Assembly (NCBI GenBank): GCA_947258975.1
Contig: CAMYKK010000049.1
Location: 1 to 64,000 of the forward strand
Source: an uncultured Gammaproteobacteria bacterium
GTDB taxonomy: Bacteria; Pseudomonadota; Gammaproteobacteria; Arenicellales; JAANXG01
Direction of reading: 5' to 3'
Length of the DNA stretch: 64,000 nucleotides
Numbering within the stretch: position 1 is the stretch's first letter; each line of letters opens with the position of its first letter. Position numbers and translations under genes: made by a program. Shown here piece by piece: positions 17,250 through 27,191 of the stretch. Below the pieces are notes generated by a model, which did no database searches, was not told where the DNA came from, and saw only the letters and a list, made by a program, of their open reading frames with translations.

Positions 17250-18158
17250 TTTACCGCTTAACAGCGCGCGCGCCACCTTGGACACCGGCGCACGTTTCAA
17301 TACATCGGAGACAAAACGCGACGCGCCCAACAGGGCGTCCATGTCGACGCCGGTGTCGATGCCCAGGCCGTCGAGCATGTAGAGCACGTCTTCCGTGGCG
17401 ACATTACCGGTGGCGCCGTCGGCGTAGGGGCAGCCGCCCAGGCCGGAGATCGCGCAGTCGATGGTGGCGACACCGAGCGGCAATACGGTGATTAGATTCG
17501 CCAGCGCCTGGCCGTAGGTATCGTGAAAGTGGGCGGCAAGAACATCCACCGGCACGCATGCGGCCACGGTCTCGATCAGTGCCTGGGCCTTGGCCGGGGT
17601 GCCGACGCCGATGGTGTCTCCGAGTGAGATTTCATAGCAGCCCATTTCTTGCAGGCGCGCGGCCACCCGCGCGACCGCCGTTGGCGCAATGTCGCCTTCG
17701 TAGGGGCAGCCCAACACACAGGAGATGTAGCCGCGCACCGCGATATTTTGGTCGTGTGCCGCGTCACACACCGCGCCGAAGCGTTCGAGGCTTTGATCGA
17801 TGCCGCAGTTGATGTTTTTGTGACTGAAGGTCTCGGAGGCGGCGCCGAACACCGCGATCTCTTTTACCCCCGCGGCAAGCGCGCGTTCCAAGCCCTGCAT
17901 GTTCGGCACCAGCACCGGATAACGCACATCGGTTCTGCGTTGAATACCGGCGAGGACCGCGGCGGTATCTTGCAACTGCGGGACCCACTTGGGGGAGACG
18001 AAACTCCCGGCCTCGATCACCGGCAGGCCGGCGGCGCTAAGCCGGTCAATCAGTTGTATCTTGATATCAGTGGGGACCGACTGCGTTTCGTTTTGCAGAC
18101 CGTCCCGGGGACCGACCTCCACCAGCTTGACGCGTGGCGGTAGGATCATTTCCGCCAT
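17238..18158 (-). CDS. liuE: Hydroxymethylglutaryl-CoA lyase
   Basis: A 306-residue HMG-CoA lyase that cleaves 3-hydroxy-3-methylglutaryl-CoA to acetoacetate and acetyl-CoA, the last step of leucine breakdown. The TIM-barrel start [11 protein letters not shown] (near residue 11), the metal-binding HFHDTYGQ near 205 and the active-cysteine loop [20 protein letters not shown] near 235 are all present. It starts inside the end of liuC (13-nt overlap), so the two are coupled. The other liu genes lie 20-24 kb away. Confidence 0.94.
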
Positions 18159-18931
18159 GCGGGTTTACGCTTGTCCAGGAATGCGTTGATCCCTTCCTTG
18201 CCTTCTGGACTCTTGCGCATGCGGGCGTTCATGTGCGCCGTGATCTGTATCAGTGCATCGTCAATGCGTGTCCCGTCCACATCTTCAATGAGCCGTTTCG
18301 CCGCCGCTTGTGCGTCCGGACCCGCGGCTTTAAGTTGATCCATCAATCCTGCAACGGATTCGTCCAGTTTGTCCGTCGCCACAACTTCATGAATGAGTCC
18401 GATGTGATGCGCTCGTGCGGCATTGAACCGTTCCGCGCTCTGGAAATAGCGGCGCGCGGCGCGTCCACCGATGGCGCGCACCACATACGGGCTGATCACC
18501 GCCGGAATCAGTCCCAGCTTGGCCTCCGACAGACTGAATATTGCGCGCTCCGACGCGATGGCGACGTCGCAGCAGGCAACCAAGCCGATCGCCCCGCCAT
18601 AGACGGCGCCGTGGATACGGGCAACGGTAGGTTTGGGTAGCCCATCGAGAACTTGCAGTAACCCAGCAAGGTGCATGGCGTCCGCGTAGTTTTCCTGCTC
18701 CGAGGTGTCCGCCATTTTTCGCATCCACGCCAGATCGGCGCCGGCGGAGAAGCTCTTCCCATTGGCGGCGAGCACCATCACCCGTACCTCGTTGTTGTTA
18801 GCCAATGCTTTTAAGGCCGCGCTCAACTCGCCGATGAGTTCGCCATTGAGTGCGTTGTGGACCTCGGGACGATCGAGGGTGACCGTCGTGGTTCCGTTAT
18901 CATCGATATCTACGGTCAGCGTATTCGCCAT
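18146..18931 (-). CDS. liuC: Methylglutaconyl-CoA hydratase
   Basis: A 261-residue crotonase that hydrates 3-methylglutaconyl-CoA to HMG-CoA in leucine catabolism. The call rests on the SFSAGADLAWMRKMA motif near residue 60, typical of LiuC/AUH, on VYGGAIGLVACCDVAIAS near 108, and on coupling to HMG-CoA lyase, which uses the product. It is the first gene of a two-gene leftward operon; upstream is 1 kb of non-coding DNA. A generic enoyl-CoA hydratase is the alternative, but the context makes it less likely. Confidence 0.9.
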   Translation of the reverse strand: MANTLTVDIDDNGTTTVTLDRPEVHNALNGELIGELSAALKALANNNEVRVMVLAANGKSFSAGADLAWMRKMADTSEQENYADAMHLAGLLQVLDGLPKPTVARIHGAVYGGAIGLVACCDVAIASERAIFSLSEAKLGLIPAVISPYVVRAIGGRAARRYFQSAERFNAARAHHIGLIHEVVATDKLDESVAGLMDQLKAAGPDAQAAAKRLIEDVDGTRIDDALIQITAHMNARMRKSPEGKEGINAFLDKRKPAWRK

Positions 18932-19669
18932 AAGTTTAGAGACTCAAAAACATATGGCTCACACGATACAAGATGCAAGCCAGCAGACACAAGGTACACG
19001 AGGTAAGAGGTTGATTGAATGTGATAGTTTAGACTTGACGTTATATGTGCTTTCAGCTCAAGAGCGGCTACTCCTGCTCACGACCCAGGGTAATGTGTAA
19101 AAAGTCGCCGAGATTTCGAACGACTGGGACAACGCTCCACTTTGGTTGTGGTATTGCGTTATGCGCTTCCTTATTTTTTCATAGCCATCGTGTTTGCGAC
19201 GAACATACGTATCGTTTTACCACCGGTTATTTTGATCTCGACTTTTTACACGGCCTGGACCCACAGCAGGCATAGAGATGTTTCAGGGTACTGGTCCGTT
19301 CAGTGCCCAGAGAGTGTGAAAACGCGAAAAATTAAGAGGCTGTTGGGACAGCACTGCACTTCGTTCATCAGCAGACACAACTCTAACCACCGAAGGTCCA
19401 CTTATGAAAAGAAATCACCAATCCCACCAACAATTTTGATTCAACGTTTTCATTAGGCTGTGCCCTTTCCAGACCTTCGTGCTGAAGATCAGAATGAGTT
19501 GCTGCGCTGCAGCACCAATGCTCCGAAACGACCCACAGGAGACGGACGAAATAAAAACGGATGAACGTCCATTCTCATTTATAGCGGACATAACTCGCGG
19601 CGTTGTAAAATCCAAATTCAACTACTCTGTTACATTCAATCGAATGAGTGCAAAATACTCATTAATAGT
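18932..19669. other. Long gene-free, more AT-rich stretch
   Basis: About 740 nt between liuC and the IS110 end relic. Short open frames are present on both strands, but none has a ribosome-binding site with a recognisable protein. The base composition is more AT-rich than the flanking catabolic genes. It is probably eroded accessory DNA. Confidence 0.5.
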
Positions 19670-19800
19670 CCTTCTGTCCTCTCTCAGTGATACTTAGAAC
19701 AGCTGGCAGGTATCTGTCAGTGAGAGTGGGACATGCGCCTGGACACGACCCACTGGAGACTACTTAGCGAGCTCAAGGAATGTCTGTTTTAGGCTATAGA
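19670..19800 (+). mobile_element. Relic of an IS110-group left end
   Basis: By eye, 19681-19733 matches the reverse complement of 25718-25776, the non-coding end upstream of the IS110 transposase. Shared blocks include GTGATACT, AGCTGGCAGGTA, CTGTCAGTGA and GGGACATGC, with scattered substitutions. A further block, GAGCTCAAG near 19768, matches a sequence nearer the transposase start, about 85 nt closer than in the full element, suggesting an internal deletion. No transposase frame follows; nhaA starts at 19944. Confidence 0.6.
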
Positions 19801-19943
19801 GCTGCCGTTCTAATCGTTGTGATTTTCTCGGTAAATTTAAGAATCCGAGTTTGTAATATTCTTCCGTTGATGTATTAAACTCACGTCCGGGACATCTACA
19901 TCACTTAAAATTTGCTTTTAGATACTCACGATTGCTTCCGAAA

Positions 19944-21134
19944 ATGTTAAATGCCTGGCGAAACTTCTTAAAGCTCGAAACCGCGAGCGGTATCCTTCTC
20001 GTTGGTGCGGCGGTCTTTGCGATGATCATCGCCAATTCACCGGTGAGAGGCTTTTACGAGTCACTCATCGATTTGCCCGTTTTAGTCCAAGTCGGTGCAC
20101 TGAACATTTCAAAGCCGTTGTTACTCTGGATCAATGATGGTTTGATGGCGCTATTTTTCTTAGTGATCGGACTGGAGCTTAAGCGTGAGATTATTGAGGG
20201 GCAGCTGTCGGACTTGAGAAGAGTGGTCCTGCCAGCGGTGGGTGCCGTGGGTGGGATGGCCACGCCGGCATTGATTTACATCGCGGTCAATTGGGGCGAC
20301 GATGTGGCTTTGCAAGGCTGGGCGATACCAGCAGCGACGGATATTGCTTTCGCGCTGGCTATTCTAGCTCTACTGGGCAAACGCGTACCCGTGTCCTTAA
20401 GGGTGTTTTTAGTCTCATTGGCCATCTTTGATGATGTCGGCGCGATAGTCATCATTGCATTGTTCTATACCAACGAATTATCGCTTGAGGCATTGGCTGG
20501 GGCTGCGGTCTGTTTACCTGTATTGTATGCCTTGAATCGCCGAGGCGTGGTTGAGAAAGCCCCTTACCTGCTCATGGGATTAGTAATGTGGGTGGCTGTT
20601 CTGAAATCGGGCGTGCACGCGACATTGGCCGGTGTGATACTTGCCTTCTTTATTCCGATACGAAACACTGAAGAAGCGCCGTCCCCACTGCATGAAATGG
20701 AGCACGATCTTCACACGGCCGTGGCGTTCGGTATTTTGCCGCTGTTCGCGTTTATGAATGCGGGCATCTCTTTAGACGGCGTATCGTGGGAATACTTGTT
20801 ACACCCGGTTCCATTCGGTATTGCTGCCGGCCTGTTTATTGGAAACCAGATTGGTATTTTCTCCCTGTGTTGGCTGGCGGTGCGACTTGGTTTAACGCGT
20901 TTGCCCGAGGACATGAACTGGATTCATATGTACGGTACGTCACTCGTCTGTGGGGTCGGATTCACGATGAGTTTATTCATTGGTTCTTTGGCTTTCGAAA
21001 GTACGGGTGTCAATCTTTTGTTTGATGAACGTCTGGGGATTATTGTTGGGTCGCTACTTTCTGCCGTTTGCGGATATTTTGTGCTAAGACTTTCCTTATC
21101 CAACGTCTCCCCAGTGGTTGATCCATCGGACTGA
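19944..21134 (+). CDS. nhaA: Na+/H+ antiporter NhaA
   Basis: A 396-residue, twelve-helix inner-membrane antiporter, close to the 388 residues of E. coli NhaA. The key ion-binding aspartate pair is present in [39 protein letters not shown] precedes it and [14 protein letters not shown] lies near residue 70. It expels Na+ in exchange for protons, giving salt and alkaline tolerance. ATG 19944 is preferred over TTG 19932, which adds only four residues; no clear ribosome-binding site is seen. It lies in an accessory region beside a decayed Na/Ca exchanger gene and IS110 traces. Confidence 0.95.
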
Positions 21135-21239
21135 TGCAAATCGGAACCAGACGGGAGGAATTTGGGGATACCCTGAATAACTGAAAATCTCTTTAAATCG
21201 GACCATAGCAGTCGGGTTTGAAATCGCCGGTTTCCGTAT

Positions 21240-22092
21240 TCACCGTCTGTGCACCACGTACATTAAGTAGGCACCATACAATACGACAAAAAGTAGTCCG
21301 TGCGATCGCAGGAGCGTGTTACTGCGGCTGGTCACGAGCGCTAAAATGATTAATGTGCTGGAAACAATTACCATCACGAGGTCGGTATTGTTAATCACCT
21401 CAAAAGGTAACTCCACGATGCTTGCGGTGATGCCGAGGACCCACAACAAATTGAATATACTCGAACCGATGACTGTACCGACGGCAATGTCGGCGTGTCG
21501 CCGGTAAGCCGCGATTGCCGAAGCAACGATCTCCGGGCTGGACGTGCCTATCGCAACAACCGTCAGCCCAATTAACGCGTCACCGACACCCCATGAACGG
21601 GCGATACCGACTGCGCCATCAACCACCCATTCTCCACCAAAATACAAACCCAGTATTCCCAGGCCAATATAGACGACGGCCAAAAAGATGTTCACCGTTG
21701 GCTTTTCATCGTGATCGGAGTGTTTTGTCGCTCAAGCGACTTTGTACACGTACAACATAAATAAAGAAAAAAAACAGCAGTATCGCCCCGTCCAGACGAC
21801 TGATGCTAAGTTGCGGGTGCGGTGAAAACAAAGCAGCATTCGCTAGGAATCCGACCAGCAAGGCGGCGGTCAGCGAAAAAGGAATCTCCGATACCACTGT
21901 TGATTCGCTTACCGGTAATGGCCTCACCATCACTGCGACACCCAGCACCAATAATATGTTAGCGATATTGCTACCAATAACATTGGCGATAGCTAGATCA
22001 GCGCTTCCGCGCAGCCCAGCGACCACCGACACAATCATTTCCGGCAACGAAGTACCAAACGAAACAATCGTCAGCCCGATGACGAGGGTGAG
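21240..22092 (-). pseudogene. Broken Na+/Ca2+ exchanger (CaCA/YrbG) gene
   Basis: Two pieces of one CaCA-family exchanger lie in different frames. The upstream piece reads LTLVIGLTIVSFGTSLPEMI and NVIGSNIANILLVLG (first alpha repeat) and ends at a TGA near 21706. The downstream piece, one frame over, reads YFGGEWVVDGAVGIA, LIGLTVVAIGTSSPEIVAS and VIGSSIFNLLWVLG (second alpha repeat). A single frameshift lies in the linker near AAAACA (about 21722-21727). The N terminus is also missing: TAG directly precedes the first homologous codon at 22093. The product cannot be a working exchanger. Confidence 0.85.
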
Positions 22093-22259
22093 CTACCGGG
22101 CTTCTCTATTGGGGACGACCTGCGAGAAATGTCATAGCAACCTAGCAAATAACGGAGTAAGGTGGTCAGTAATTAACGGATAGTCTCGTGTGACCATCGA
22201 CAATTTATACCAAATCAAGGCTACTGATGATTCATAGGGTACGCTAGGAGGTACTGACA

Positions 22260-23777
22260 GTGGCTGAACAAACAAACACTCTTGAAGTGACGGAATTGAA
22301 TATTACGGGGGAAGCTCGTAAGCGACTGATTGCTGTGTTTGCAAATGGTAGTGTTTGGATGTACAAGGCATTAAGGAAATCTCGTGTCATTACTGCCTCT
22401 GCTTTGTTGCTAGCAGGTTTCGCAGTACAAGAATCGGCCTCGGGTGAGGAGCTATATCAACTTTATTGTGGACCAGTGGCTTGCGCTGAGATTTATACGG
22501 GAGAGGGAGTATTGCATCCGCAGGTCATCGCCGAACTCTTTAGGAGCGGCGGTGGACTCGGTCAACTCCGCATCATATTCGTTTACGACTTTCCGTGGTA
22601 TGAAGCTCCGAGTTTTAGTCTTTATCTGAATAGCCATCTTGCTGAACGAATCGGTGGTCCATATGGGGTGGAACTTTCTCCGCAAGACTCCCTTACTCTC
22701 TTTCAAAACGCAGACGTTTTCATCGCAGGGGTAGAGAAAGCTTTTAACTCGCCAGAATCGTTTATGTTAGGAGCTTGGCCGTCTCCTCCAAGTCTTGATG
22801 ACATCGTCGATGTTGTTCTTGAGCAGATCCCCAATGATATTTTGCAGTGGGATAATGAGCACGGGAATGGACCTGGTAGCTCTCCAGGTGATCCACCGGC
22901 ACCAGTTGCTGGAGCCACAAACCTAACTCCACCTACTATATGTGAGTCTAACCCGCATCTTTGCGGCATCTTCCCAGGTGGTACTCCTGGTGATCTACCG
23001 ACACCACCTGATGGACCCACAAACATAACTCCAGCTACTATCTGTGAGTCTAACCCGCATCTTTGTGGCATCTTCCCAGGCGGCATTCCAAGTGATCCGC
23101 CGAAAGATTCGCCGAGTTATCAACCGAAAGACCCAACAGAACCTGCTGGATACACAGACATAGCTCTAGCGCGAGGCCCCATTTGTGATTCTCTCGATTG
23201 CTTAAGTCCAAGAGCCCGCAGACGCATCACTAGAACCAGCCGCATGGTCGCCCGCGATTTAGCAGCAGCGACACCGAGAGTTACAATTGACCTTCCGCAA
23301 CAGCCGAGCATATCAATTGGCATGTCGACACGGAGTATAACAATCGGCACAGCCCCAACCGACAGCAACGCCGAGCCGACAGCGACACCTAGCATAACGA
23401 TTGGCATACAGCCATCGCAGAATTCTGAGTCAGAGGGCTTAATGTGTAGTAAGGAACAGCTCCAGGCTGAAGCGAGTGAGGTGCTATGCATCAGCAGATG
23501 TGATTCTTGCGCTGCCTATCAAGAGGCCCGAATAACAGCCGGTGCTGCCAGCATTTGCGGCGCCGCAGCGGCAGCGATCGGTCTGGCTCTTTCGCTTGAA
23601 ACGGGAGGCGGAAGCTTAGCTCTGGTCGCAAAGTTTGGTGCTGCCGGCGCAGGAGGCTGTGGCGTTGCATGGGCTGGAATGAACGCCTCATCGATCATTG
23701 CCAAGCGAGCTCAGTGCATAAGTTATTGCGGTTATATATGGAGTAGTGCTGGGGGAACAGGTGGAGCAGCACCCTAA
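22260..23777 (+). CDS. Unrecognised exported repeat protein with Cys-rich hydrophobic C-terminus
   Basis: A 505-residue protein I cannot assign. GTG 22260 has GGAGG 8-9 nt upstream. Residues 1-34 are polar; a basic stretch (MYKALRKSR) and hydrophobic helix (VITASALLLAGFAV) follow, like a signal peptide with an N-terminal extension; an internal start at Met34 is possible. The middle holds two near-identical 34-residue repeats (about 209-277) ending in TICESNPHLCGIFPGG, then Pro-rich and SITIG-repeat segments. From about 394 on there are eight cysteines around a Gly/Ala-rich hydrophobic core (SICGAAAAAIGLALSLETGGG...AGGCGVAWAG). A cell-surface or bacteriocin-like role is speculation. Confidence 0.65.
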   Translation: MAEQTNTLEVTELNITGEARKRLIAVFANGSVWMYKALRKSRVITASALLLAGFAVQESASGEELYQLYCGPVACAEIYTGEGVLHPQVIAELFRSGGGLGQLRIIFVYDFPWYEAPSFSLYLNSHLAERIGGPYGVELSPQDSLTLFQNADVFIAGVEKAFNSPESFMLGAWPSPPSLDDIVDVVLEQIPNDILQWDNEHGNGPGSSPGDPPAPVAGATNLTPPTICESNPHLCGIFPGGTPGDLPTPPDGPTNITPATICESNPHLCGIFPGGIPSDPPKDSPSYQPKDPTEPAGYTDIALARGPICDSLDCLSPRARRRITRTSRMVARDLAAATPRVTIDLPQQPSISIGMSTRSITIGTAPTDSNAEPTATPSITIGIQPSQNSESEGLMCSKEQLQAEASEVLCISRCDSCAAYQEARITAGAASICGAAAAAIGLALSLETGGGSLALVAKFGAAGAGGCGVAWAGMNASSIIAKRAQCISYCGYIWSSAGGTGGAAP

Positions 23778-24236
23778 GAGTAGCCCCGCTCTTTTTGCTG
23801 ACGGGCAGTTCTTGGACGTTTATGGCACAGTGAAAAATGCCAAAAGTCCCATAGTGCGGCTAAGATGTCGCGGATTCCGCGACCTTCTATCCATCAGTAT
23901 TTCGCATGCGTTCGTTTGAATGCAACAACTGGTTGAATTTAGATGTTGTTACACGGTGCTTTGCGTCCGCTATCGATAAGCGCAGACGTTCACCCTTTCT
24001 TACCACGTTCGTCAGCCTCACGCCCTGAGTTATTCCGTCAAGCATTTAGTCTCTGGTAGCTGATATTTTTTCGTCAGTCTTATTCCAGGGCTCTGAGCGG
24101 TAAGAGTGTAGTTTGCAGGTAATATGTCACACAATGCAAAGCCTGAGATCACGTGTGCTGCACGATCTCGGTCCCAGCCATACACCGGGGTGGGGTCGAA
24201 TGGGTTGGTATCTGCGACGGCGATTCGTTTCCATTG
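23778..24236. other. Gene-free stretch next to the IS110 transposase
   Basis: 459 nt between the unknown exported protein and the IS110 transposase stop. It should contain the right end of the IS element, but IS110-group elements lack long terminal inverted repeats, so I cannot place the border. No credible gene is seen. Confidence 0.4.
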
Positions 24237-25526
24237 TCACGCGCTCGGTTGTTCTGTCAGGTTCTGCTTGGAGTCAATCGCTTGATTAAGGAGTGGTGAT
24301 CCTCTGCGTTTTAGTGCTTTCAGATAGGCAACTTCACTGTACGGGGTTCGTGTCTGCCAACAACGGTAGAGGACACGGATCCATTTGAATGCTAGTGCAC
24401 GAACCGCTGCTTGGTAGGTACAACCTTTGTCTCGCTGTTGGCGATAATACGCGCCCGCCCAGAACGATTTATTGATAGTTTGTGCCGCCCACTCCACGAA
24501 CGTCTGTCGCAGGAAGGTCGGACATTGCCATCGCCAATGTATCCAGTTCTTCTTTCCGCTGCGTTCGGTGACGGGGGCAATGCCGGAGTATTTTTGTAGC
24601 TCCGCTGCATTGTTAAAGCGTTCCCGTTGTTCTCCAAAGGCCACCAATAACCGCGGCGCGAGTGAAGGCCCGGCGCCGGGGAGTGAAGCGAACAACGCAT
24701 AATCGGGGTGCTTAGGTGCCAGTTCAGCGATTGCCTCGTCAAAGCGCGTGATGGCGGCCAACGTCGCTCGAAGTAAGTCCACCAAGACCAGAGCTTGGAG
24801 TCGATGTGGCGTGATCACGGCCTGGTCTAAGGTTAGTGGCAATGCCGCCTTGATGGACTGAAGCCGCGCCTTAAGGACATGGGCAAAGCGCATGTTGTGC
24901 TGGTGGAAAAAGGTTTCCAGTGTTGCTTTACGAGCTCGTTTTACCTGTATGAGCGTCGGCCAACGCTCAATAAAATCACAGAACAGCGGCGTGTCGATGT
25001 GATCGAACCACTCCAGGGTCTGCGGATAGTACTGTTTCAGCGTATTTCGCAGTCTATTGGTCATGCGGACTCTGTCGTTCACCAAGCGCCGTCGCTGTTC
25101 TACTAAAGACACCAGGGTGCGCATCTCCACACTCTGCGGAGTTAACGGTTGGAAACGATGTGGATGGCGTAGGATCAGATCTAAAGCGAGTTCGGCATCG
25201 GTCGGATCATCTTTGGCCCGACTGGGGGCAAATGCTTCACGATACTTGGCCAACGTTGAAGGATTAACCGGAAAGATCACAAAGAAGTCGTACTTCTGCA
25301 GCGCATAGACGACAGGCCCTTTAGACAGCTCCAATGCCACCGCAATCGGTCCACCAAAGCGTCGATACAATGACTGTGCCCAATCGTCGATTTCATCGAC
25401 TTTGTGCGAGATACGGGCAAACTCTCGACGTTCATCACCAGCGGCTTGGATACAGACGTCATGTTTAGCGTCTGCCCAGTCAATGCCAATGAAAGCGGTA
25501 AAAGATTTATTACTCGGTGTATTCAT
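24237..25526 (-). CDS. IS110 family transposase (DEDD recombinase)
   Basis: A 429-residue IS110 recombinase. The N-terminal RuvC-like domain shows FIGIDWADAKHD (Asp near 16), VALELSKGP (Glu near 61) and KDDPTDAELA (Asp pair near 113-118). The C-terminal domain shows LPGAGPSLAPRLLVAFG, and PVTERSGKKNWIHW near residue 322 with the conserved serine. All key residues look intact, so the enzyme could be active. GGAGGT lies 8 nt before ATG 25526; the frame stays open upstream to 25718, but that part is the non-coding end. Confidence 0.93.
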   Translation of the reverse strand: MNTPSNKSFTAFIGIDWADAKHDVCIQAAGDERREFARISHKVDEIDDWAQSLYRRFGGPIAVALELSKGPVVYALQKYDFFVIFPVNPSTLAKYREAFAPSRAKDDPTDAELALDLILRHPHRFQPLTPQSVEMRTLVSLVEQRRRLVNDRVRMTNRLRNTLKQYYPQTLEWFDHIDTPLFCDFIERWPTLIQVKRARKATLETFFHQHNMRFAHVLKARLQSIKAALPLTLDQAVITPHRLQALVLVDLLRATLAAITRFDEAIAELAPKHPDYALFASLPGAGPSLAPRLLVAFGEQRERFNNAAELQKYSGIAPVTERSGKKNWIHWRWQCPTFLRQTFVEWAAQTINKSFWAGAYYRQQRDKGCTYQAAVRALAFKWIRVLYRCWQTRTPYSEVAYLKALKRRGSPLLNQAIDSKQNLTEQPSA

Positions 25527-25589
25527 GAAATACCTCCACAGTGGTAACTTAAGCAATAGGGACATGCTTGCTTGAGCTCTTCGAAGGCA

Positions 25590-25790
25590 ATATAGGTGAG
25601 CCGGTATGTCGGCAAGCCCTGAGTATTCGTTGGCGAACTCAAGCGCACCCGCGGACTCGAAGCCAAAGCCGTAAACATCGCGTGTTTGGGTCGTAATATT
25701 CGTAGTCTGCGGGTGCATGTCCCGCTTTCACTGACAGCTACCTGCCAGCTGTGATCAGTATCACCGAGAGCGGGACGGAGTATCTATAAT
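25590..25790 (-). ncRNA. Candidate bridge RNA in the IS110 left end
   Basis: IS110-group recombinases use a structured RNA encoded in the non-coding end upstream of the gene. Here GTCCCGCT at 25719-25726 can pair with AGCGGGAC at 25769-25776, with further pairing inside (TCACTGA with TCACCGA-region bases, AGCT with AGCT), giving a long imperfect stem-loop. The same stem is kept, with some sequence change, in the relic near 19681-19733. Loop assignment and exact ends need modelling; extents given are approximate. Confidence 0.45.
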
Positions 25791-26152
25791 GGGTCGTTAG
25801 TGCCAGTTCGTCCCGATCCTGCGAAAGTCGGCATGAGTATTCACCGGCCCTTCGTTGAACAAATTTCCGATATGTCCGAATGCCCGGAGCTGGTCGATCT
25901 GATTCGTTCGCAGCTTCTGAGTTGCGACTTAAACCGGCACTGTTCGTTGGAGCAAGTCTGGATTAGTAGAGACAAAACGATATGTAGTCGGGACTCAATT
26001 TGCGGTAACGTGTGAACTTATTAATGTATGCGGCGTAGCGTCGGCGCAACTATAGCGGCGGGATATATTTGCGGATTTTCAGTGAGAGAAATGCATAGCC
26101 AACCGTCGCGCATTCGTTAAAGCCCTATTTTATTAGAAGGTAGGTTACTGAT
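25791..26152. other. Gene-free leader before terC
   Basis: 362 nt between the IS110 border and terC. A 71-codon frame at 25800-26015 has no recognisable features. TerC relatives in other bacteria can follow a manganese riboswitch (yybP-ykoY), but I cannot make out its conserved core here. AAGGTAGG precedes the terC ATG. Confidence 0.35.
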
Positions 26153-26887
26153 ATGGAATGGATTGCATCTCCCGAGGCCTGGGTAGCGCTTGCCACACTC
26201 ACGGTGTTGGAAATCGTGCTCGGCATCGACAATATCATCTTCATCTCCATCCTCGTGGGACGGTTGCCCGAATCGCAGCGGCAAACCGCTCGCATCGTCG
26301 GGCTGAGCATCGCGATGGGGATGCGCATACTGTTGCTGTTGTTGATCACGTGGATCATGAAACTGCAAAGTACCTTGTTCACGGTCCTGGATGTCGAAAT
26401 TTCAGGGCGCGACCTGATTCTCATCGGCGGTGGTTTGTTCCTCATAGCCAAGGCGACCCTGGAGATACACAGCGCGGTCGAGGGCGATGAAGGACACCAG
26501 GCCGGTGGTGCAGTGGCGGGTTTTGCCGCGGTGATGATTCAGATCGGTATTATCGATATTGTTTTTTCACTGGATTCCGTGATCACCGCGGTCGGCATGG
26601 CCGAAGATGTCGAGGTGATGATCATCGCGGTGATCGTTGCGGTCATCGTGATGATGTTCTCCGCCGGTGCCATCGGCCAGTTTGTCGAGGATCATCCGAC
26701 GATCAAGATGTTGGCATTGAGTTTCTTGGTGTTGATCGGTATGGCGTTGATCGCCGAGGGGATCGATTTACACATTCCCAAGGGTTACGTTTACTTTGCG
26801 ATGGCATTTTCGGTGGTGGTTGAGTTACTCAATCTGCGGGTGCGCGGCCGCGGCCGGCCGGTCGCACTACACAAGCGCATGCCGTAA
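26153..26887 (+). CDS. TerC family membrane protein
   Basis: A 244-residue, seven-helix TerC/Alx-type protein. The two conserved acidic motifs, LEIVLGIDNIIFISIL near residue 20 and GIIDIVFSLDSVITAVG near 130, are intact. Members of the family are linked to manganese export or metallation of secreted enzymes and, in some plasmids, tellurite resistance; no other ter genes lie here, so a metal-homeostasis role is more likely. It stands alone, followed by a weak hairpin (GGGT/ACCC near 26910) and a 304-nt gap with nothing else recognised before the cyclase gene. Confidence 0.92.
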   Translation: MEWIASPEAWVALATLTVLEIVLGIDNIIFISILVGRLPESQRQTARIVGLSIAMGMRILLLLLITWIMKLQSTLFTVLDVEISGRDLILIGGGLFLIAKATLEIHSAVEGDEGHQAGGAVAGFAAVMIQIGIIDIVFSLDSVITAVGMAEDVEVMIIAVIVAVIVMMFSAGAIGQFVEDHPTIKMLALSFLVLIGMALIAEGIDLHIPKGYVYFAMAFSVVVELLNLRVRGRGRPVALHKRMP

Positions 26888-27191
26888 GCCCGCTGTAAAC
26901 GGGACCGGGTGAACTTACCCCCGTTTTCGTGGACAATCTATCGAGAAACATTCGCGTTTTGTGCATTCTGTAAAAGTATTTGGTTGGCTAACTGTACGTC
27001 GTAGTGCCATTGTGGTGCGATCAACTACCGATTTGATTTATAGACAGAGTTTGATTCATCACCGATTGCCCACGGCCTGGGAGGACGGTATTCTGACCCC
27101 CATGCAGATCGTTGCAGAAGGCGGAGTGGGTGTTCTGTTCCAACTATAGCATGGCACTCCGATGGCTCCGGGTGGCTCCGGGAAAAGATCC

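What the first reader, a model, noticed from the sequence alone, without database searches (positions are those of the whole stretch)
25527..25790. Candidate bridge RNA region of an apparently intact IS110 element
The recombinase keeps its DEDD residues and serine. Upstream lies a 260-nt non-coding end with a long stem-loop (arms at 25719-25726 and 25769-25776) also present in the relic copy. In IS110-group elements this end encodes the RNA that selects target and donor DNA, so this element may be a new programmable recombinase system.
Basis: partly seen in the sequence, partly recalled or inferred. Interest (0 to 1): 0.6.

Follow-up and report, generated by a model that had tools for sequence, protein, structure and literature searches.

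The report
Bridge RNA of an IS110 element
The stretch before this mobile-DNA gene very probably encodes a guide ("bridge") RNA that tells the element which DNA sequence to jump into; it is a well-supported new member of a system first described in 2024, not a new kind of system.

Summary
The finding is real and its interpretation holds, with corrections. An IS110-group element lies on the minus strand: recombinase 24237-25526, left end (LE) starting at 25788, right end (RE) ending at 24019, with 2-nt cores outside. Folding z is -4.9; across 21 relatives 96.9% of cells pair and 19 of 49 pairs show compensatory change (0/500 shuffles). The target guide TTACGACCC matches the element's own left flank TAACGACCC at 8 of 9 positions. 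Over 34 related insertions guide and flank agree at 7.4 of 9 positions, against 4.8 +/- 0.2 with shuffled partners (0/50,000). Donor guides match the element's own ends. The genome holds a vacant homologous site whose two sides abut across AA. The recombinase keeps D, E, D, D and S. This is the architecture of IS621 bridge RNA and IS110-type seekRNA: a diverged member of a known kind. Expression and activity were not measured, and the window copy's right-flank pairing is weak (4 of 7), so its present activity is unproven.

The parts
24237..25526 (-). IS110-family recombinase, 429 aa, DEDD and serine residues kept
   Evidence: Pfam PF01548 and PF02371; invariant D16, E66, D107, D110, S323; relatives start at the same Met, so the 493-aa ORF from 25718 is an over-long reading across the RNA
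25719..25776 (-).
25645..25716 (-). target-binding stem-loop
   Evidence: closing helix with 8 of 16 pairs changed on both sides
25688..25696 (-). left target guide TTACGACCC, followed by AA (core)
   Evidence: matches own left flank 8 of 9
25666..25672 (-). right target guide ACGGCTT
   Evidence: reverse complement AAGCCGT against right flank AGGCTGA, 4 of 7
25570..25644 (-). donor-binding stem-loop
25613..25623 (-). left donor guide CTCAGGGCTTG
   Evidence: 10 of 11 identical to the RE end CTCAGGGCGTG
25589..25595 (-). right donor guide CTATATT
   Evidence: complement of AATATAG, i.e. core AA plus start of LE; the window LE itself reads ATTATAG, one mismatch
25777..25788 (-). start of LE, TATAGATACTCC; TATAGA is a -10-like box
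   Evidence: five identical M. luteus copies diverge just before TATAG
25789..25790 (-). core dinucleotide at the LE (AT)
   Evidence: inferred from aligned ends
25791..25799 (-). left target flank TAACGACCC, end of a dispersed repeat
24019..24041 (-). RE end TTGACGGAATAACTCAGGGCGTG with -35-like TTGACG and subterminal inverted repeat GACGGA
24017..24018 (-). core dinucleotide at the RE (AG)
   Evidence: inferred from aligned ends
23890..24016 (-). right target flank, a repeat also present at the vacant site and beside the relic
19664..19786 (+). relic LE copy, guide loops mostly deleted
   Evidence: covariance model E 4.6e-15

Best explanation
The left end of this IS110-group element encodes a bridge RNA on the minus strand. 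Inferred cycle: the recombinase excises the element as a circle; joining RE to LE places a -35-like TTGACG before TATAGA and drives the RNA; the second loop pairs with the element's own RE and LE ends, the first loop pairs with a genomic site of the form TTACGACCC-AA-GCCGT, and the DEDD/serine recombinase exchanges strands at the dinucleotide core. Shown by sequence: the ends, the three-part covarying structure, guide-flank and guide-donor matching, and a vacant homologous site. Inferred from published IS621 and IS110-type work: transcription, RNA-protein complex, catalysis.
For: Folding z -4.86. 96.9% of cells paired, 19 pairs with change on both sides against 8.8 in shuffles. Left guide against own flank 7.38 of 9 over 34 insertions, shuffled partners 4.79 +/- 0.20, 0/50,000; for the 17 guides without GACCC 7.35 against 4.37, 0/50,000. 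Unguided scan puts the best diagonal at the same place. Right guide against right flank 5.58 of 6 against 4.88, 0/20,000. Vacant site in the own genome with both sides abutting across AA. Recombinase profile matches IS621, E 8.6e-18.
Against: No RNA or activity measured. In the window copy the right guide fits only 4 of 7 and the LE core (AT) differs from the RE core (AG). The junction promoter spacer is 19 nt. One donor-guide position mismatches the RE in all members seen. No genome-wide excess of predicted target sites (35 hits against 48 for the reversed control pattern).
Confidence: 0.95

Rival explanations
1. The conserved LE structure is only a cis-acting regulator or a recombinase-binding hairpin, and the guide-flank match merely reflects insertion into one shared sequence.
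For: Many targets share GACCC, and small RNAs have been reported to regulate the transposase of another IS110-family member, ISPpu9 (PMC8450116).
Against: The match persists for the 17 guides without GACCC and tracks element by element; both loops also match the right flank and the element's own ends.
Confidence: 0.03
2. It is an IS1111-group element whose real guide RNA lies downstream of the gene.
For: The window copy has about 217 nt between stop codon and RE end, long for the family.
Against: Relatives have only a few tens of nucleotides there; all guides are found in the LE; the subterminal inverted repeat is 6 bp, below the 7-17 bp given for IS1111 (PMC11208160).
Confidence: 0.01
3. The window copy is a decaying, immobile copy of a functional family: the bridge RNA is real in the family but this one no longer works.
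For: Right guide fits its flank 4 of 7, LE reads ATTATAG instead of AATATAG, cores differ, RE region is extended by about 200 nt, relic copies nearby.
Against: Open 429-aa frame with all catalytic residues, intact RE and LE motifs, stable three-domain fold. Compatible with the best explanation at family level.
Confidence: 0.35

Closest known systems
IS621 bridge RNA system, IS110 group (PMC11208160; PDB 8wt6-8wt9)
   Same: RNA in the LE upstream of the gene; 5' stem-loop plus two guide loops; [quoted passage not shown] conserved donor loop, variable target loop; -35 in RE and -10 in LE; DEDD plus serine recombinase.
   Different: Distant recombinase (429 against 328 aa; profile E 8.6e-18; no direct phmmer hit at 0.01); AA-like rather than CT core; different target; both loops framed by the same ACGAATA and TTCG motifs.
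IS110-type seekRNA elements such as ISEc21 (PMC11187229)
   Same: Non-coding region upstream of tnp; bottom-strand match precedes top-strand complement in the RNA; natural reprogramming among relatives; 429 aa lies within the 315-450 aa reported for IS110 transposases.
   Different: Different target; ISEc21 itself was not compared in sequence here.
ISCro4 recombinase (PDB 9t56)
   Same: Only solved chain found by direct sequence search, E 3.3e-7, C-terminal part aligned best.
   Different: 341 aa; full-length similarity weak.
IS110 transposases on Klebsiella and Yersinia plasmids (e.g. WP_004132572.1)
   Same: About 54% identical recombinase; LE carries the same RNA layout, guide TTGTGCCAG against flank TAGTGCCAG.
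   Different: Different target; annotated only as IS110 family transposase; whether ISfinder names them could not be checked.

Membership tests
IS110-group bridge RNA element | DEDD recombinase with C-terminal serine domain | tested here: met
   Pfam hits; invariant D, E, D, D, S
IS110-group bridge RNA element | Bridge RNA in the LE, 5' stem-loop plus two stem-loops with internal guide loops | tested here: met
IS110-group bridge RNA element | Target guides complementary to the insertion site | tested here: met
   in the window copy left guide 8 of 9, right guide 4 of 7
IS110-group bridge RNA element | Donor guides complementary to the element's own RE and LE | tested here: met
   CTCAGGGC identical to RE; CTATATT complement of AATATAG, one mismatch in the window copy
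IS110-group bridge RNA element | Promoter formed at the RE-LE junction | tested here: inconclusive
   TTGAC hexamer and TATAG hexamer at a constant 19-nt spacing in 18 elements; no transcript data
IS110-group bridge RNA element | Identical core dinucleotide at both ends | tested here: inconclusive
   AA at both ends in L021, L024, L025, L027, L032, L035; differs at the LE in other copies, including the window (AT, AG)
IS110-group bridge RNA element | RNA-guided recombination | not testable with these tools
   needs experiment
IS1111 group | Bridge RNA in the RE and subterminal inverted repeats of 7-17 bp | tested here: not met
   RNA is in the LE; inverted repeat TCNGTC/GACNGA is 6 bp

The most novel reading that the evidence does not exclude
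A separate, undescribed subfamily of bridge recombinases (about 420-aa enzyme, AA-type core, target and donor loops framed by the same ACGAATA...UUCG motifs, which suggests that the two loops arose by duplication) that retargets itself often, in this genome into dispersed repeats.
Probability: 0.3. Interest if true: 0.5.

Novelty: new member of a known kind. Interest (0 to 1): 0.35.

Why it matters
It adds a well-bounded natural set (34 guide-target pairs analysed, mostly from Gammaproteobacteria and one Cupriavidus plasmid) of bridge-RNA recombinases only distantly related to IS621. Orthologues with another core and naturally varied guides help to learn which guide positions are programmable and to choose new recombinases for DNA writing in laboratory strains.

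Tried and rejected
Rfam: no match at gathering score or at E up to 1. First guess that the RE ended near 23896: dropped once five M. luteus copies showed the RE ends CTCAGGGCGTG. REP-like palindromic targets: some sites look palindromic (L016, L022), but the own-partner score of 5.16 against 5.08 shuffled is not significant. Excess of predicted target sites in the genome: none. The empty site of an M. luteus copy could not be searched. Searches failed through wrong coordinates or relatives with stop codons. Automatic guide reading misplaced L072 (score 3); by eye its guide TCATACTCA fits its flank AATACTCA; it was kept in the statistics as read. L077 was misread and corrected.

Full report
Observation. 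The stem arms are at the stated positions and close a 58-nt stem-loop. The minus strand of 25559-25788 folds at -88.2 kcal/mol, z -4.86 against dinucleotide shuffles. The recombinase is Pfam DEDD_Tnp_IS110 plus Transposase_20; D16, E66, D107, D110 and S323 are invariant among 12 aligned proteins.

Ends. Relatives were collected with the protein and later with a covariance model of the RNA. Five copies in Methylobacter luteus with identical coding sequence diverge just before TATAG and just after GGGCGTGAAC. Transferred to the window, the element starts with TATAG at 25788 and ends with CTCAGGGCGTG at 24019, with dinucleotide cores outside (25789-25790 and 24017-24018).

Structure. Twenty-one LE sequences align into a 5' stem-loop and two large stem-loops whose guide loops are clamped by CGAA:UUCG pairs. 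For 49 pairs, 96.9% of cells pair, 19 pairs have a change on both sides (8.8 in shuffles), and 61 cells are compensatory (18.5 in shuffles; at most 12 when the partner is slid). The structure counted was adapted from the RNAalifold consensus of the same alignment, so its excess over slid registers is partly expected; the compensatory changes are the stronger evidence.

Guides. In each first loop the nine bases after ACGAATA repeat the element's own left flank. Examples: AATTGCCC (L014), TTTCGGCCC (L032), CATACTC (L016), ATTTGCTCC (L073), TTGAGCGA (L096), TGCATGCG (L090). Over 34 insertions, allowing a shift of one base equally for real and shuffled pairs, agreement is 7.38 of 9 against 4.79 +/- 0.20 with shuffled partners, 0 of 50,000. 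For the 17 guides without GACCC it is 7.35 against 4.37, again 0 of 50,000; a control stretch further upstream in the flank gives 3.56. Relatedness among elements is not modelled by these shuffles, but the diversity of the guides argues against an artefact. An unguided scan of RNA and flank positions also put the best diagonal there. The right guide matches the right flank beyond shuffles (5.58 against 4.88 of 6), with paired changes such as ATGCGG (L016) and ATCCGG (L037). The second loop carries CTCAGGGC, identical to the RE end, and CTATATT, the complement of AATATAG (core plus start of LE).

Window copy. Left guide TTACGACCC against flank TAACGACCC: 8 of 9. Right guide against right flank: 4 of 7. 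The left flank is the end of a dispersed repeat with six further places in the genome; four of those six end in TTACGACCC, a perfect match to the guide. One of the two best predicted targets in the genome (C13 near 11838, two mismatches) is a vacant site. There GAACGGGTAAATACGACCC-AA-GCTGTCGG joins, across the core, sequence homologous to the window's right flank that starts exactly after the core (score 50, shuffles at most 24) to a left side resembling the window's left flank up to the core (15 of 20 positions; that part alone is not above shuffles). It is a homologous repeat copy, not the same locus in a sister strain. Two other copies in this genome, cut by contig ends, carry different guides (GTGCCC in L002, CGACCC in L003) that match their own flanks.

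Comparison. The layout agrees with the IS621 bridge RNA (PMC11208160) and the guide order with IS110-type seekRNAs (PMC11187229). Differences: a larger and distant recombinase (IS621 profile E 8.6e-18), an AA-like core, and a 6-bp subterminal inverted repeat. IS110 transposases of 315-450 aa are already on record (PMC11187229), so size alone is not new. I file it as a new member of the IS110 group; subfamily status is open, because ISfinder was not available and no tree was built.

Limits. No transcription, binding or recombination was measured. The junction promoter has a 19-nt spacer and is only suggestive. Core identity varies at the left end. Whether this particular copy is active is uncertain.

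Noticed in passing
window 19019-25975: A segment of about 7 kb (relic IS110 end, NhaA-type antiporter, Na/Ca exchanger pieces, a 505-aa orf, the IS110 element) is absent from same-genus genomes; in G005 (L100) the window flanks 17643-19019 and 25975-27143 abut directly. The IS110 element is not at its border.
   Followed up: partly
window 21240-22047 (-): A sodium/calcium exchanger gene appears split into two adjacent open frames, both matching Pfam Na_Ca_ex, perhaps a pseudogene or a frameshift in the assembly.
   Followed up: no
window 25791-25845; L005-L010, L012; left flank of L036: A dispersed repeat of about 50 bp whose end reads TTACGACCC in most copies; similarity stops there in each copy. 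It also forms the left flank of a related element in another genus. Its origin is unexplained.
   Followed up: partly
window 23890-24016, 19541-19668; L142: A second dispersed repeat of about 125 bp occurs at the right flank of the element, beside the relic and at the vacant site.
   Followed up: partly
window 22872-23075: A 102-bp tandem duplication, 85% identical, inside the 505-aa orf, which has no Pfam match.
   Followed up: no
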